This document shows positions 42,755 to 49,280 of a stretch of 64,000 nt of DNA, piece by piece. The DNA is from Thermoleophilaceae bacterium (GTDB lineage: Bacteria; Actinomycetota; Thermoleophilia; Solirubrobacterales; Thermoleophilaceae): the NCBI GenBank assembly GCA_030447875.1, contig JAUJOA010000002.1:1-64000 (forward strand), in the 5' to 3' direction. The translations under genes were made by a program, and so were the position numbers. The stretch's first letter is position 1; each line of letters opens with the position of its first letter. Below the pieces are notes generated by a model. That model did no database searches and was not told where the DNA came from. It saw only the letters and a list, made by a program, of their open reading frames with translations.

Positions 42755-44002
42755 GTGTCGCGCGCGGAGAAGCTGCGGGCGCCGAGAGGCACCTTTGACA
42801 TATTGCCGCCGGACGGGCGGCGCCGGCGCGAGCTCGCCGGCATCGCCGCCGAGCTATTCGACGCCGCGGGGTACGAGCCGGTCGAGACCCCGATCTTCGA
42901 GGACACGGACCTCTTCGCCCGCGGCGTGGGCGAGACGACCGACATCGTGCAGAAGGAGATGTTCACCTTCGAGGACGCGGGTGGTCGGTCGATCACGCTG
43001 CGCCCGGAGGGAACCGCCGGCGTCTGTCGCGCCTACGCCGAGCATGGGATGCACAAGCTGGCCCAGCCGGTCAAGCTCTGGTACGCGGGCCCCTACTTCC
43101 GGTACGAGGCACCACAGGCCGGCCGCTTCAGGCAGTTCAGCCAGATCGGCGCGGAGGCACTCGGGTCCGATGATCCCTCGATCGACGCCGAGCTCATCCT
43201 GCTGCTCCGCGACCTCCTCGAACGCGCCGGAGCGCGAGGTGTTCGCCTGCGGCTGTCAAGCCTCGGCACGCCCGAGGCGCGTCGCGCCTACTCCGGCGAG
43301 CTTCGCGAGTACCTGCGCGCCCGGGAGTCGGAGCTCTCCGACGACGTGCGCGCCCGGCTCGACGCAAACCCCCTGCGGGCGTTCGACTCAGACCACCCAG
43401 GCACGCGCTCCGTCGTGGAGGGCGCCCCGCGGCTGCTCGACCGCTTGGCGCCCGAGGACTCCGAGCATCTGGTCGCCGTCTGCGCCCTGCTGGATGACGC
43501 GGGCGCCGACTACGAGCTCGACGGCACCCTGGTACGCGGCCTCGACTACTACACACGGACGGTGTTCGAGTTCACAAGCGACGCGCTCGGCGCCCAGAGC
43601 GGCGTGGGCGGCGGCGGTCGTTACGACGGCCTCGTGGAGCAACTCGGCGGCCCAGCGACCCCCGGCGCGGGCTGGGCGGCCGGCATCGAGCGGATCCTGC
43701 TCGCGTCGGAGCGCTCGGGCGCGCCGGGGCCCGCGCCGGTCTTCGTCGCGCTGGAGGAGGGCGAGGATGCGCGGCGGGGCTTCGCCCTCGTCAGGCGGCT
43801 GCGCGCCGCCGGGCTCGGTGCCGAGATGGAGCAGGCCGGGCGTTCGCTGAAGGGACAGCTGAAGCATGCCGATCGCCGGGGAGCGCGCTGGGTGGTGATC
43901 GTCGGATCGGGCGAGCTCGCCCTGAGGGACATGACCAGCGGAGAGCAACGGCCGCTCGGGGACGAGGGGCAGCTGATCCGGACGGTCACGGAGCTGCGAT
44001 GA
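42755..44002 (+). CDS. hisS: Histidine--tRNA ligase
   Basis: A class II aminoacyl-tRNA synthetase. Motif 1 region (GTFDILPPDGRRRRELAG), motif 2 (VKLWYAGPYFRYEAPQAGRF followed by RQFSQIGAEALGS), the HisA segment RGLDYYTRTVFEF and motif 3 (GVGGGGRYDGLVEQLGG, GAGWAAGIERILLA) are intact. The C-terminal anticodon-binding domain spans ~residues 320-410. It is 415 aa. The GTG start is 3 bp after the MBL gene, and its TGA overlaps the aspS ATG. Confidence 0.97.
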   Translation: MSRAEKLRAPRGTFDILPPDGRRRRELAGIAAELFDAAGYEPVETPIFEDTDLFARGVGETTDIVQKEMFTFEDAGGRSITLRPEGTAGVCRAYAEHGMHKLAQPVKLWYAGPYFRYEAPQAGRFRQFSQIGAEALGSDDPSIDAELILLLRDLLERAGARGVRLRLSSLGTPEARRAYSGELREYLRARESELSDDVRARLDANPLRAFDSDHPGTRSVVEGAPRLLDRLAPEDSEHLVAVCALLDDAGADYELDGTLVRGLDYYTRTVFEFTSDALGAQSGVGGGGRYDGLVEQLGGPATPGAGWAAGIERILLASERSGAPGPAPVFVALEEGEDARRGFALVRRLRAAGLGAEMEQAGRSLKGQLKHADRRGARWVVIVGSGELALRDMTSGEQRPLGDEGQLIRTVTELR

Positions 44003-45762
44003 GGTCGCCGCCGCCGAACCGCTACAGAACGGCATGGGCGGGTGACCTGCGCCCGGGCGACGTGGGAGCCGACGTCCGCGTGGCCGGCTGGGTCCACCGA
44101 CGTCGCGACCACGGCGGCCTGATCTTCATCGATCTGCGCGACAGGACTGGGCTCCTGCAGCTCGTCTTTCGGCCCGAGGAGGCGCCCGACGCGCACGCGG
44201 CCGCCCACGGTCTGCGGTCGGAGGACGTGATCACCGCCGCCGGTTCGCTCTCGCCGCGGGAGGAGGGAACCGTCAACCGCGGGATGAGCACCGGCGAGGT
44301 GGAGTTGAGCGTCACAGAGATGGAATTGCTGGCCGACTCCGAGACGCCCCCGTTCCAGATCGACGAGGACACACCCGTGGAGGAGGAGCTGCGGTTGCGC
44401 TACCGCTACCTGGACCTTCGGCGCGACCAGATGCGCTCCGCCATGGAGCTGCGCGGCGCGATCACCCACACGATGCGCCGGCACCTCCACGACCAGGGCT
44501 TCCTCGAGATCGAGACGCCGATCCTCACGCGGTCGACGCCCGAAGGAGCGCGCGACTACCTCGTGCCGAGCCGCCTGCAGCGTGGATCGTGGTACGCGCT
44601 CCCGCAGTCGCCGCAGCTCTTCAAGCAGCTCCTGATGGTGGCCGGGTACGAGCGCTACTTTCAGATCGCCAGGTGCTTTCGCGACGAGGACTTCCGCGCC
44701 GACCGCCAGCCCGAGTTCACGCAGCTCGACGTGGAGATGTCGTTCGTCGAGGAGGACGACGTGATGCGGGTATGCGACCAGCTGCTTGGAGCCGTGCTCG
44801 CGGTCGCCGGCGTCGAGGTGTCGCTCCCGCTCGAGCGCATGGCCTACGACGAGGTGATGCTCCGCTACGGCACCGACCGCCCCGACCGCAGGATCGGCAT
44901 GGACATTCACGACCTCGGGGCCGCGTTCGCCGGCTCGGAGTTCAAGGTCTTCACGAGCGCACTCGCTTCGGGGGGTGTCGTGCGCGGGTTTCGCGCGAAC
45001 GGCGACTTCTCGCGGGCACGCCTCGACGAGCTCACCGAGCGCGCCAAGGAGCTGGGGGCCAAGGGGCTCGTCTGGGCGGTCGTCGAGTCCGACGGCTGGC
45101 GGTCACCGATAGCGAAGTTCCTTAGCACCGAGGAGACCGCGGACGCCGGCGCCGAGCTTCAGGCCGGCGAAGGCGACACCCTGTTCATCGTGGCCGACGA
45201 GGAGAGGGTGGCCGCACGCGTGCTCGGCCGCCTGAGGATCGAGGTGGCGGGCCCGCCGTCGGGCCACGACCTCTTCTGGGTCACCGACTTCCCCATGTTC
45301 GAGTGGAGCGACGAGGAGTCGCGCTGGGACGCGCTGCACCATCCCTTCACCGCTCCCCAAGGTGACCTCGACGCCGACCCGGGCACGTGGAGGAGTCGCG
45401 CCTACGACGTGGTCATGGACGGCCTCGAGATCGGCGGCGGCTCGATCAGGATCGACCGGCCGGACGTGCAGCGCAAGGTGTTCGATGCACTCGCCCTGTC
45501 CTCGGAGGAGGCCACTCGCCGGTTCGGGTTCCTCCTCGAGGCGCTTCGCTACGGGGCGCCTCCTCACGGGGGCATCGCCTTCGGCCTCGACCGGGTCGTG
45601 GCGCTCCTGGGGGGCCGCGACTCCATCCGCCAGGTCATCGCATTTCCAAAGACCGCGAGCGGCTCTGACCCGATGACGGGCGCCCCGGCGCCGGTGGGCG
45701 AGACTCAGCTGCGTGAGCTTGGGATCCGGCCGTCCGGCGCAGGCTCCGAGGGCCGGGCCTGA
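43999..45762 (+). CDS. aspS: Aspartate--tRNA ligase, bacterial type
   Basis: A class IIb synthetase with an N-terminal OB-fold anticodon domain (VRVAGWVHRRRDHGGLIFID), the catalytic core (DFRADRQPEFTQLDVEMSFV) and a bacterial GAD insertion (residues ~285-410). Motif 3 is GIAFGLDRVVALLGG. Whether it is discriminating or also charges tRNA-Asn cannot be decided by eye, and no gatCAB genes are in the window. It is 587 aa and overlaps hisS as ATGA. Confidence 0.97.
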   Translation: MRSPPPNRYRTAWAGDLRPGDVGADVRVAGWVHRRRDHGGLIFIDLRDRTGLLQLVFRPEEAPDAHAAAHGLRSEDVITAAGSLSPREEGTVNRGMSTGEVELSVTEMELLADSETPPFQIDEDTPVEEELRLRYRYLDLRRDQMRSAMELRGAITHTMRRHLHDQGFLEIETPILTRSTPEGARDYLVPSRLQRGSWYALPQSPQLFKQLLMVAGYERYFQIARCFRDEDFRADRQPEFTQLDVEMSFVEEDDVMRVCDQLLGAVLAVAGVEVSLPLERMAYDEVMLRYGTDRPDRRIGMDIHDLGAAFAGSEFKVFTSALASGGVVRGFRANGDFSRARLDELTERAKELGAKGLVWAVVESDGWRSPIAKFLSTEETADAGAELQAGEGDTLFIVADEERVAARVLGRLRIEVAGPPSGHDLFWVTDFPMFEWSDEESRWDALHHPFTAPQGDLDADPGTWRSRAYDVVMDGLEIGGGSIRIDRPDVQRKVFDALALSSEEATRRFGFLLEALRYGAPPHGGIAFGLDRVVALLGGRDSIRQVIAFPKTASGSDPMTGAPAPVGETQLRELGIRPSGAGSEGRA

Positions 45763-45788: not shown

Positions 45789-45975
45789 CGCTGTGAGTGC
45801 TAGCTTGTTCGCAGGCCCGAGCCTGTTCGCCAGCCGTCTATTCGTTGAGCCAACACGACTGGGATGGGTGTCCGGCTCGGGGCGAGTCGAGGCTCGTCCC
45901 GGAGGACGCCCAAGCTTGCTAAGGCAGGTTCAACTCCCAGGCGGCAGCGGCAGGTTGGGGCCTGATCCCACAGCG
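45789..45975 (+). ncRNA. Structured RNA element, rod-like fold (~187 nt), upstream of mnmA
   Basis: Nested helices seen by eye are CGCTGTG/CACAGCG (45789/45969), CAGGCCC/GGGCCTG (45812/45958), AGCCTG/CAGGTT (45820/45951), TTGAGCC/GGTTCAA (45845/45927), GGGTGTCC/GGACGCCC (45866/45904) and CGGGGCGAG/CTCGTCCCG (45878/45893). Four helices contain G-U pairs that would be C-A clashes on the other strand, so the RNA is plus-strand. GGATGGG (45862) can alternatively pair with CCCATCC directly before the mnmA GTG. It is either a cis-regulatory leader of mnmA or a separate ncRNA. I found no SRP, 6S, tmRNA or RNase P signature. Confidence 0.5.
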
Positions 45976-45985
45976 ATCCCCATCC

Positions 45986-47506
45986 GTGGCTAACCAGCGC
46001 TTCCCAGCTGAGGTCAAGGCGGCCGCGGCGCCGCTCCTCTCTCCATTCGAGGATCACCTCTCGACGCCGCGTGGACGCGGGCGGCTGCGGCAGGCGCCTC
46101 ATATGGGGGCGGCCGGCGGGGCCGCGTGTGGCGACCTCATCCGCGTGGCCGTTCAGGTCGACGAGGATCGAGTGGTCGACGCCGGCTTCGACGCCCGCGG
46201 TTGCGCCGCCGCTTCTGCGGCCGGCAGCGCCGTGGTGGAGCTCGTGGCGGGGGCGCCGCTGCTCGCGGCGGCCCGCGTGACACACGACTGTGTCGCCGAT
46301 GCGCTCGGCGGGCTCGACCCGTCGCGCCGCCACGCCGCGGCACTGGCCGCCGATGCGCTCCACCGCGCGCTCGGTGCAGCGGTCGCGGACGGGATGGCAC
46401 GATTGGACGCCTCGAGCGACCGTACGCTGGTGGCGATGAGCGGTGGGGTCGACAGCGCCTTGGCCGCTCGACTCGCGCTCGAGGCAGGCCACCAGGTGAT
46501 CGGGGTGACGCTCGAGCTGTGGTCCGATCCGGCCAACGACGGGGGGAAGAGCTGCTGCTCGCCGCAGGCGGTGACCGGCGCGCGGGCGCTCGCGCACGGG
46601 ATGGGCCTGGCGCACCTGACGCTCGATCTTCGGGGGCGGTTTCGCACCGCCGTGGTGGACGACTTCGTGGCCGAGCACGACGCGGGTCGCACACCCAATC
46701 CGTGCGTACGTTGCAATGGACTCGTTCGCTTCGACGCCATGCTGAGGCTCGCCGGGTCGCTCGGTGCCAGGCGCCTCGCGACCGGCCACTACGCACGAAT
46801 CGCGCGCGATGAAGAGGGGCCGCTCCTTCGCGCGGCGGCCGATCCCGACAAGGATCAGACCTACATGCTCGCGCGGCTCACGCCTGACGAGCTCGAGCGT
46901 CTGTGGTTTCCGCTCGGAGGTCTGACGAAGGACGTCGTCCGGCAGCGCGCCCGGTCCGTGGGGCTGTCCGTGGCCGACAAGGCCGAGAGCCAGGACCTCT
47001 GCTTCCTAGCCGGAACGCGCCGCGCGAGCTTCCTCCGCCGTCACGCGACGCGGACATCGAAGACGGCACGCCGGGGGGAGATCGTCGACCTCGGGGGAAC
47101 GGTGATCGGCCACCATCAGGGCCACCAGGAGTTCACCATCGGTCAGCGGCGCGGCCTCGGTCTCGCGGCCCCTCAGCCGCTGTACGTCATCCACAAGGAC
47201 CCAGTCGCCAATCGCGTCAAGGTCGGTCCGCGCGCCGCGCTCGCCACCCGCCGCGTGGCCCTCCGGCTGGCGCGCCTGGACCGCGCGGGGGGCGCCGTGG
47301 ACCGTGTGAAGCTTCGCTACCGGTCGGAGCCGGTTCCGTGCCGTCTGGCGGGCGGACCTCCCGCGGGCGACCACGACCGACTCGAGCTTCGGCTCGAGAG
47401 ACCGGTGGAAGCGGTGGCACCGGGGCAGACGGCCTGCCTGATGCGCGGCGACGCCGTGGTTGGATGGGCGACCATCGACGAGCAGGAGGAGCGCCGTGCC
47501 GCCTGA
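45986..47506 (+). CDS. mnmA: tRNA 2-thiouridine(34) synthase MnmA with N-terminal NifU/SufU-like scaffold domain
   Basis: The C-terminal ~360 residues are MnmA, which thiolates U34 of Lys, Glu and Gln tRNAs: PP-loop AMSGGVDSALAARLA, catalytic Cys in RTPNPCVRCNGLVRF, second Cys in ESQDLCFLAG, and GHHQGHQEFTIGQRRGLGLA. The first ~145 residues are an IscU/SufU-like scaffold (EDHLSTPRGRGRL, GGAACGDLIRV, ARGCAAASAAGSAVVELVAG). The first two metal-ligand Cys are present, but the third is Ala (RRHAAALAADAL instead of H/KCA). The start GTG 45986 has no Shine-Dalgarno and follows the structured RNA element. Total length is 506 aa versus ~360-380 for ordinary MnmA. Confidence 0.93.
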   Translation: MANQRFPAEVKAAAAPLLSPFEDHLSTPRGRGRLRQAPHMGAAGGAACGDLIRVAVQVDEDRVVDAGFDARGCAAASAAGSAVVELVAGAPLLAAARVTHDCVADALGGLDPSRRHAAALAADALHRALGAAVADGMARLDASSDRTLVAMSGGVDSALAARLALEAGHQVIGVTLELWSDPANDGGKSCCSPQAVTGARALAHGMGLAHLTLDLRGRFRTAVVDDFVAEHDAGRTPNPCVRCNGLVRFDAMLRLAGSLGARRLATGHYARIARDEEGPLLRAAADPDKDQTYMLARLTPDELERLWFPLGGLTKDVVRQRARSVGLSVADKAESQDLCFLAGTRRASFLRRHATRTSKTARRGEIVDLGGTVIGHHQGHQEFTIGQRRGLGLAAPQPLYVIHKDPVANRVKVGPRAALATRRVALRLARLDRAGGAVDRVKLRYRSEPVPCRLAGGPPAGDHDRLELRLERPVEAVAPGQTACLMRGDAVVGWATIDEQEERRAA

Positions 47507-47888
47507 GAGGATCGAGCTCGTAACGCCCGCCGGACGCGACTGGTCGCCGGTCGTGCGGCTCGTGCTCGGCGGGATCGGAGATCGCCTCGACCTGGGCTTT
47601 GACGAGCTCGACGACCTCCAGCTCGCCGTGGAGCGGCTGCTCGCGGAAGCGGGGGCTCAGGAGGCGGTTCGGATATCGGTCGAGATCGTCGACGGGGGCG
47701 TGAAGGCGCAGATCGGCCCGCTGAACGAGGTCACCATCGCGGAGGCGCTGCAGGGACCGGAGCCGCGGCCCGGCGAGCTGACCCTGCGCCGGGTCCTCGA
47801 GACGGTCGTCGATTCCTTCGGCGTCGAGGACGTGGACCGCGAGGGGCTCTACGTCAGGCTCGACAAGGTGGTGCACCGGTCCCGGTGA
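47496..47888 (+). CDS. Anti-sigma factor serine kinase, RsbW/SpoIIAB-like
   Basis: A GHKL-type ATPase domain of ~130 aa: helical N-box region FDELDDLQLAVERLLAEAG, then SVEIVDGGVKAQIGPLNE and the C-terminal LRRVLETVVDSFGVED. The G-boxes are worn, as in many actinobacterial homologues. It presumably binds and inhibits the sigma factor encoded immediately downstream (GTGA overlap). GTG 47496 with GCAGGAGGA five bases upstream is preferred over the track start. No anti-anti-sigma (STAS) gene is adjacent, so release of the sigma factor must come from elsewhere. Confidence 0.82.
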   Translation: MPPERIELVTPAGRDWSPVVRLVLGGIGDRLDLGFDELDDLQLAVERLLAEAGAQEAVRISVEIVDGGVKAQIGPLNEVTIAEALQGPEPRPGELTLRRVLETVVDSFGVEDVDREGLYVRLDKVVHRSR

Positions 47889-48676
47889 CGAGCAAGCGCG
47901 ACGGGAGGGGCGGTCGGGCCGCCGGTACGTCGACCGCGCCGGGCGCTCCACCGCAGACCGACCGAGAGCTGCTTCGGCGCTACCACGAGGGAGGGGACCG
48001 GACTGCGCGCGAGGAGCTCGTGCAGCGCCACCTGCCCCTGGTCCGCGCGCTGGCGCGCCGCTACGCCGGGCGGGGCGAGCCGCTCGACGACATCGAGCAG
48101 GTCGGCGCGATCGGCCTGCTCAAGGCGATCGATCGCTACGAGCTGTCGCGCGAGGTCGCGCTCACGACCTACGCGACGCCCAACGTGGTGGGCGAGATCA
48201 AGCGGCACTTTCGTGACAAAGGTTGGGCGATCAGGATTCCGCGCGGCCTGCAGGAGCTGAACGCGCGCATGTCCTCGACGGTCGAGAGGCTCACCTCGCG
48301 GATGGGACGCTCGCCGACGATCGCCGAGATCGCCCGTGAGCTAACCGTGGGCCCCGAGGAGGTACTCGAGGCGCTCGAGGCGGGGTCGGCCTACGCTCCT
48401 ATGTCGCTGTCGGGGAACCCCTCGAGCGAGAGCGATCTCGACCCGATGGAGGCGCTTGGCGGAGAGGATGAGGCGTTCGAGCGATCGGAGCAGCGCGCGA
48501 CGCTCGAGCCGGCGCTTCACGCTCTGCCCGAGCGCGATCGGGAGATCTTGAGAAAGCGCTTCGAGGAGGGGCTGACGCAGACGCAGATCGCCGAGCAGGT
48601 CGGGATCTCACAGATGCACGTGTCGAGGCTTATCCGGAAATCGCTCGCACGGATGCGAGCGGAGCTGTCCGGTTAG
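47885..48676 (+). CDS. RNA polymerase sigma factor, SigB/SigF/SigG subfamily (group 3)
   Basis: Sigma-70 regions in order: region 2 (ELVQRHLPLVRALARRYAGR, then DDIEQVGAIGLLKAIDRYE and ALTTYATPNVVGEIKRHFRD), region 3 (PRGLQELNARMSSTVERLT) and region 4 HTH (PERDREILRKRFEEGLTQTQ, then EQVGISQMHVSRLIRKSLAR). It is 263 aa, the general-stress/sporulation-type length. It is in an operon with its probable anti-sigma kinase. The 3' end overlaps the convergent HD-GYP gene by 47 bp. Confidence 0.94.
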   Translation: MTSKRDGRGGRAAGTSTAPGAPPQTDRELLRRYHEGGDRTAREELVQRHLPLVRALARRYAGRGEPLDDIEQVGAIGLLKAIDRYELSREVALTTYATPNVVGEIKRHFRDKGWAIRIPRGLQELNARMSSTVERLTSRMGRSPTIAEIARELTVGPEEVLEALEAGSAYAPMSLSGNPSSESDLDPMEALGGEDEAFERSEQRATLEPALHALPERDREILRKRFEEGLTQTQIAEQVGISQMHVSRLIRKSLARMRAELSG

Positions 48677-49280
48677 CCGCCACGTCGCCGGCTTGCGCCA
48701 GCTCCATCTCGCGGTCGGTAGTTCGCCCGCGACGGGCGAAGAGGACGCGCGCCACGGCGGCGACCACGGTCGGGTCGAACTGGCTTCCCGCGCCGGCCCA
48801 CAGCTCGGCGACCGCTCGTGCGTGGCTGACCCCCTTGCGGTAAGGGCGGTCGGTCGTCATCGCGTCGTAGCTGTCGCAGCAGAAGACGATTCGGGCGGCC
48901 AGTGGGATGTCCTGGCCGGCCAGCCCGTCGGGGTAGCCCGTCCCGTCCCAGCGCTCGTGTGATGACCTGACGATTCGAGCGATGCTCGACAGCGACTCCT
49001 CGGCGCGCGCGAGCATGGCTTCACCCTCGGTGGTGTGGGTCTCGATCACCTCACGCTCGACGGTGGTTAGCCCGCTGGGCTTGTCGAGGATCGCGTTCGG
49101 GATGTTGAGCTTGCCGATGTCGTGGAGAAGTGCCGCGAGCTCGAGCTCCTGGCGTGCCTCAGGCTCGAGGCGGAACTCCTCGGCGACCAAGCTGGCCAGC
49201 TCCGCAACGGAGCGAGCGTGGTCCGCGGTGCGGTGGTCAGCCGCCTCGGCGAGGGACAATGCGTGTGCCGCGAGCGACAT
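48630..49280 (-). CDS. HD-GYP domain phosphohydrolase, stand-alone
   Basis: A 216-aa cytoplasmic HD-GYP protein with no sensor domain: HRTADHARSVAELASLVAEE, the metal site LLHDIGKLNIPN, SSHERWDGTGYPDGLAGQDI and CCDSYDAMTTDRPYRKGVS. It is expected to degrade cyclic di-GMP or another cyclic dinucleotide. Its last 15 codons lie opposite the end of the sigma factor gene. Confidence 0.92.
   Translation of the reverse strand: MSLAAHALSLAEAADHRTADHARSVAELASLVAEEFRLEPEARQELELAALLHDIGKLNIPNAILDKPSGLTTVEREVIETHTTEGEAMLARAEESLSSIARIVRSSHERWDGTGYPDGLAGQDIPLAARIVFCCDSYDAMTTDRPYRKGVSHARAVAELWAGAGSQFDPTVVAAVARVLFARRGRTTDREMELAQAGDVAANRTAPLASVRAISG

What the first reader, a model, noticed from the sequence alone, without database searches (positions are those of the whole stretch)
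45789..45985. Unclassified ~187-nt rod-like RNA just before mnmA, with a possible start-codon switch
Six nested helices can be drawn by eye over 45789-45975, four of them with G-U pairs that would be mismatches on the minus strand, so a plus-strand RNA is favoured. GGATGGG at 45862 sits at the foot of an inner helix but is also complementary to CCCATCC immediately before the mnmA GTG. A second alternative pair (CTGGGA 45859 / TCCCAG 45935) crosses the TTGAGCC/GGTTCAA helix. Competing structures of this kind are what a riboswitch or tRNA-sensing leader looks like. No SRP, 6S, tmRNA, RNase P or T-box motif was recognised.
Basis: partly seen in the sequence, partly recalled or inferred. Interest (0 to 1): 0.68.

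Follow-up and report, generated by a model that had tools for sequence, protein, structure and literature searches.

The report
6S RNA downstream of aspS
The rod-shaped RNA is not an unknown riboswitch but 6S RNA, the RNA that mimics an open promoter and shuts down the main RNA polymerase; its presence here and in many other Actinomycetota matters because recent papers say this phylum lacks it.

Summary
The structure is real, on the plus strand, and is a full-length 6S RNA (Rfam RF00013, 55.6 bits against a cut-off of 46.4, model 1-187/187). The default whole-window scan missed it. The RNA proper is about 45813-45966. My models find the RNA in 153/249 genomes of the class and 103/397 of the phylum, almost always one copy, and downstream of aspS in 77/85 loci examined, as Bacillus subtilis 6S-1 is. 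The rod covaries strongly. The riboswitch / start-codon idea fails: GGATGGG/CCCATCC is not conserved (P = 0.34). Likely function: bind the sigma70-type holoenzyme and be released when polymerase copies the invariant GAGCCAAC template into a short product RNA. New member of a known kind; published statements that Actinobacteria lack 6S RNA need narrowing.

The parts
43999..45762 (+). aspS (aspartyl-tRNA synthetase), conserved upstream neighbour of the RNA
   Evidence: Pfam tRNA-synt_2, GAD, OB-fold; upstream on the same strand in 77/85 homologous loci
45798..45806 (+). extended -10 promoter element TGCTAGCTT of the 6S gene; expected start of transcription near 45813
   Evidence: TGnTAnnnT within 30 nt upstream in 71/85 homologues against 0-1/85 in control windows; the start site itself is inferred from spacing
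45813..45966 (+). 6S RNA (approximate ends)
   Evidence: Rfam RF00013 55.6 bits, full model; covariation; fold z -6.53
45814..45829 (+). closing stem P1, 5' arm (pairs with 45948-45962)
   Evidence: 14 pairs, 97.6% of cells paired, 7 pairs with changes on both sides
45833..45839 (+). inner part of the closing stem, 5' arm (pairs with 45939-45945)
   Evidence: fold; matched-against-permuted z -6.6 within families, -11.0 global
45845..45854 (+). P2 5' strand and product-RNA template TTGAGCCAAC; predicted product RNA 5'-GUUGGCUCAAC... starting opposite C45854
   Evidence: GA-CCA invariant and the following A and C at least 90% conserved in 59 sequences although AAC is unpaired; B. subtilis product RNA GUUCGGUC; start site inferred by analogy
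45859..45864 (+). [quoted passage not shown]
   Evidence: matched-against-permuted complementarity, 0/20000; z -5.0 within families, -11.1 global
45865..45912 (+). terminal arm: P3 45865-45873/45904-45912 and P4 45877-45887/45892-45902
   Evidence: P3 99.2% of cells paired, 3 pairs with double changes; P4 more variable, 82.2% paired; fold
45913..45930 (+). 3'-central-bubble hairpin 45913-45919/45924-45930, which shares GG 45927-45928 with P2 and so competes with it
   Evidence: covariation; forms in the minimum-energy fold when the template is blocked
45927..45933 (+). P2 3' strand GGTTCAA (pairs with 45845-45851)
   Evidence: 93% of cells paired, few variable pairs
45935..45940 (+). [quoted passage not shown]
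45986..47506 (+). downstream gene: MnmA with a NifU/IscU-like N-terminal domain, GTG start; not controlled by this RNA as far as the evidence goes
   Evidence: Pfam NifU_N plus three tRNA_Me_trans domains; pairing of the RNA with the start region not conserved

Best explanation
45813-45966 encodes 6S RNA. Shown here by comparison: family membership, a conserved promoter element of its own, single copy, conserved place downstream of aspS, covariation of the rod, and covariation of two alternative helices in the central bubble. Inferred from work on other species: the RNA folds as a rod with a central bubble that mimics an open promoter and occupies RNA polymerase carrying the primary sigma factor when growth slows. 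When nucleotides return, polymerase starts a short product RNA at C45854 (5'-GUUGGCUCAAC...), which opens helix P2. The freed strands then form the central bubble collapse helix (45859-45864/45935-45940) and the 3'-bubble hairpin, and polymerase is released.
For: Rfam 6S full length above the curated cut-off, and in 15 of the 34 class loci scanned at E <= 0.0034, all next to aspS. Found in 153/249 class genomes and 103/397 phylum genomes; Rfam confirms 11/11 tested families outside the class at 65-122 bits. aspS upstream in 77/85 loci; extended -10 element in 71/85. Rod covariation 0/500 shuffles; 3'-bubble hairpin; collapse helix. Blocking the template switches the predicted fold to the collapse helix. 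Invariant GAnCCA plus AC matching the B. subtilis template.
Against: No expression or binding data; every functional step is by analogy. Product-RNA start site is by homology only. The collapse helix shows no signal outside the class, and single-sequence folds contain it in only 35 of 82 blocked structures (against 22 of 82 free). No 6S was detected in families f2 and f4 of the same order.
Confidence: 0.95

Rival explanations
1. A cis-acting leader (riboswitch, T-box or tRNA-sensing element) that controls translation of mnmA by sequestering its start.
For: GGATGGG 45862 is complementary to CCCATCC before the GTG; the RNA lies about 20 nt upstream of mnmA.
Against: Pairing no better than permuted partners in 16 relatives (P = 0.34). 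GGG of GGATGGG is an invariant part of P3. mnmA is hundreds of bases away or not found nearby in most other families while aspS stays upstream. Own promoter element. Rfam reports 6S and no riboswitch or T-box here.
Confidence: 0.01
2. An Ms1-type RNA, the actinobacterial RNA that binds core polymerase without sigma.
For: Same phylum; Ms1 is structurally related to 6S (PMC9130861).
Against: Length about 154 nt rather than about 300 and no extra terminal hairpins (PMC9130861 for Ms1); Rfam 6S match; template motif conserved; aspS synteny as in Bacillus. All orders with Ms1 listed in PMC9130861 belong, to my knowledge, to the class Actinomycetes.
Confidence: 0.03
3. A chance GC-rich inverted repeat with no function.
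For: High GC favours stable folds.
Against: z -6.53 against dinucleotide shuffles, Rfam match, compensatory changes in 16 of 31 pairs.
Confidence: 0.002

Closest known systems
6S RNA family, Rfam RF00013 (E. coli ssrS; B. subtilis 6S-1)
   Same: Rod with closing stem, central bubble and terminal arm; full-length model match; product-RNA template motif; downstream of aspS as B. subtilis 6S-1 (aspS-yrvM gap)
   Different: Shorter (about 154 nt against about 180-200); GC-rich; in a phylum from which 6S has been called absent
Central bubble collapse helix and 3'-bubble hairpin of B. subtilis 6S-1 and Aquifex 6S RNA (PMC8876501)
   Same: Same two strands: distal 5' bubble with the 3' strand of the P2 region; 3'-bubble hairpin present as well
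   Different: Known there from probing and mutants; here from covariation in the class, with register shifts between families; no experiment
Ms1 RNA (Mycobacterium, Streptomyces)
   Same: Phylum; related rod-and-bubble shape; polymerase-associated
   Different: About 300 nt, extra hairpins, binds core enzyme (PMC9130861)

Membership tests
6S RNA (RF00013) | Covariance-model score above Rfam's gathering threshold, full length | tested here: met
   55.6 against 46.4 bits, model 1-187
6S RNA (RF00013) | Rod with closing stem, large central bubble and terminal arm, conserved by compensatory change | tested here: met
6S RNA (RF00013) | Template for product RNA in the 5' strand of the bubble | tested here: inconclusive
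   Sequence motif GAnCCAAC conserved and like B. subtilis; synthesis not testable here
6S RNA (RF00013) | Free-standing transcript from its own promoter | tested here: inconclusive
   Conserved extended -10 in 71/85; no transcript data
6S RNA (RF00013) | Binds holoenzyme with the primary sigma factor and inhibits it | not testable with these tools
   needs pull-down and in vitro transcription
Ms1 RNA | About 300 nt with two extra short hairpins at the 5' and 3' ends | tested here: not met
   about 154 nt rod between a conserved -10 element and the end of conservation; Ms1 description from PMC9130861
mnmA leader riboswitch / T-box | Match to a known riboswitch or T-box family | tested here: not met
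   only 6S reaches its threshold in the region
mnmA leader riboswitch / T-box | Conserved pairing between the leader and the start region | tested here: not met
   P = 0.34

The most novel reading that the evidence does not exclude
6S RNA at the aspS locus is ancestral in Actinomycetota and was lost in the lineages that carry RbpA (and, in the literature, Ms1), while in Thermoleophilia the central bubble collapse helix is a selected release switch, visible as covariation between the two bubble strands. In 397 sampled genomes 6S and RbpA overlap in only one, which has only a partial RbpA-like match; that association is confounded by ancestry.
Probability: 0.45. Interest if true: 0.65.

Novelty: new member of a known kind. 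Interest (0 to 1): 0.5.

Why it matters
Two recent papers state that 6S RNA is widespread except in Actinobacteria, or not identified there apart from one Streptomyces candidate (PMC9130861, PMC11077062). Here it is found in much of one class and in about 20 other families of the phylum, mostly beside aspS as in Bacillus, which points to an old locus. That makes it possible to ask when and why 6S was lost and Ms1 took over. The collapse helix, inferred from probing in two species, gains comparative evidence and a set of natural compensatory variants to test.

Tried and rejected
Default Rfam scans of the window and the own-genome family search missed the RNA; permissive filters on 361 bases found it. 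Riboswitch, T-box and start-codon switch: rejected. Collapse helix outside the class: no signal, partly because my text anchors misplaced the 3' strand in several sequences. Rfam 6S next to aspS in 13 loci of other phyla (mainly Clostridia) with default filters: none at gathering, T-boxes instead, so synteny outside the phylum rests on the B. subtilis literature only. Families f2 and f4 of the same order: no 6S near aspS even with filters off, nor in the f2 and f4 genomes listed in the genome scans. Matches of model R1 on the opposite strand of the same loci are the mirror image of a near-palindromic rod and were ignored.

Full report
What is there. The plus strand of 45789-45985 folds far better than shuffles (z -5.28, 0/200) and the minus strand does not (z -1.36). 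Given only 361 bases with permissive filters, Rfam identifies 45812-45965 as 6S RNA (RF00013) from model position 1 to 187, 55.6 bits against a curated threshold of 46.4, E 1.4e-10.

Extent and promoter. Aligning homologues shows a conserved TGnTA just upstream of the rod. TGnTAnnnT lies within 30 nt upstream in 71 of 85 homologues, against 0-1 of 85 in four control windows of 20 nt. A -35-like hexamer (at least 4 of 6 matches) at 16-18 nt spacing is present in 29 of those 71, against 7.5% for random positions. In the window the element is TGCTAGCTT, 45798-45806, so transcription should start near 45813 (inferred from spacing). Its complementarity is not conserved (P = 0.72), and removing the flanks improves the folding z-score to -6.53.

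Relatives. The window's genome belongs with MAGs titled Thermoleophilaceae: L055 has a contig length of 319,815 bases, equal to G001 contig 10, and G001 is in the same family as the window. A model from 16 sequences (R1) finds the RNA in 153 of 249 genomes of the class and 80 of 108 genera; one match per genome in all listed but one. A model from 59 sequences (R2) finds it in 103 of 397 genomes of the phylum, including about 20 families outside the class. Rfam independently confirms all 11 of those that I tested, at 65-122 bits. The RNA lies downstream of aspS on the same strand in 77 of 85 loci, median distance 124 nt, 75 within 1 kb. B. subtilis small RNAs, 6S-1 among them, come from the aspS-yrvM gap (reference title in PMC12005410; that 6S-1 is the RNA meant is my own knowledge). 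Families f2 and f4 of the same order have no detectable copy.

Covariation. On an unguided alignment of 59 sequences from seven families the rod has 94.8% of cells paired, 16 of 31 pairs with changes on both sides and a covariation score of 0.362. No shuffle of 500 reaches any of these measures, and sliding partners by one column drops pairing to about 50%. The 3'-bubble hairpin also covaries (18 double-change cells against 6.5 in shuffles, 0/500). It shares two bases with the 3' strand of P2, so the two cannot be complete at once.

The two alternative pairs. The second (CTGGGA/TCCCAG) is supported. Because its register shifts between families, fixed columns undercount it (53.9%). A test without fixed register compares the complementarity of matched strands with that of permuted ones. 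Over an 8 x 8 grid of strand segments the known helices stand out, and the only other strong cell is the distal 5' bubble against the strand 3' of P2: z -11.1 for global and -5.0 for within-family permutation. In one search the mean matched energy was -7.26 kcal/mol against -4.80 (global) and -6.52 (within family), with 0 of 20000 permutations as good in either case. The unrelated cells of the grid serve as an empirical null for relatedness. Twenty-one further class members give z -2.6, although some are close relatives of those used. Outside the class there is no signal (z -0.3).

This pair is what PMC8876501 calls the central bubble collapse helix: it involves the distal 5' bubble and the 3' strand of P2, and was inferred for B. 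subtilis 6S-1 and Aquifex 6S RNA. Folding the window RNA with 9 or 14 template bases blocked, to imitate a bound product RNA, switches the minimum-energy fold from the open bubble to the collapse helix plus a 7-bp 3'-bubble hairpin. Across 82 homologues the minimum-energy fold contains at least three collapse-helix pairs in 22 free and 35 blocked structures, so single-sequence folding supports it only in part.

How it most likely works. Shown here: family, extent, promoter motif, synteny, rod and bubble helices. Inferred from E. coli and B. subtilis: binding of the sigma70-type holoenzyme as an open-promoter mimic, product-RNA synthesis from C45854 (5'-GUUGGCUCAAC...; compare B. subtilis 5'-GUUCGGUC), opening of P2, collapse of the bubble, release.

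Novelty. The RNA belongs to a known family. What is not ordinary is the lineage. PMC9130861 and PMC11077062 say 6S is missing or unidentified in Actinobacteria apart from one Streptomyces candidate, with Ms1 in many of them. No paper in the held library combines 6S RNA with Thermoleophilia, Conexibacter, Rubrobacter or Coriobacter. The main surveys (Wehner 2014, Barrick 2005) are not held and may already list some of these species, so I do not claim first discovery. In the 397 phylum genomes 103 have 6S and 54 have RbpA, with one overlap, a partial RbpA match (Fisher P 1e-6, confounded by ancestry).

Noticed in passing
45986-47506 +: MnmA carries an N-terminal NifU/IscU-like domain (Pfam NifU_N, 86 bits, residues 23-129) fused to the tRNA thiouridylase, and the fusion recurs in the gene next to 6S in relatives; an Fe-S scaffold or sulfur-handling domain fused to MnmA would be worth a look.
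   Followed up: partly
47460-48676 +: Directly downstream of mnmA: a small protein without a Pfam match whose reading frame overlaps the next gene, then a SigB/SigF-like sigma factor (Sigma70 regions 2, 3, 4), so a stress-type sigma factor sits two genes from the 6S RNA.
   Followed up: no
48630-49280 -: HD_5/HD domain protein (HD-GYP-like) convergent with the sigma factor gene.
   Followed up: no
L025-L027, L030, L035, L036, L039, L040, L043, L047, L048, L051, L053 (family f2): A whole family of the same order has no detectable 6S RNA near aspS or in the genome scans, which suggests a lineage loss or strong divergence.
   Followed up: partly
L174, L180-L182 (family f7): In this family the product-RNA template may sit in the loop of a 5'-bubble hairpin (for example ACGTG...CACGT around GAACCAAC), a variant not seen in the window.
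   Followed up: no
phylum sample of 397 genomes: 6S RNA (103 genomes) and RbpA (54 genomes) are almost mutually exclusive (one overlap, with a partial RbpA match), confounded by ancestry.
   Followed up: partly
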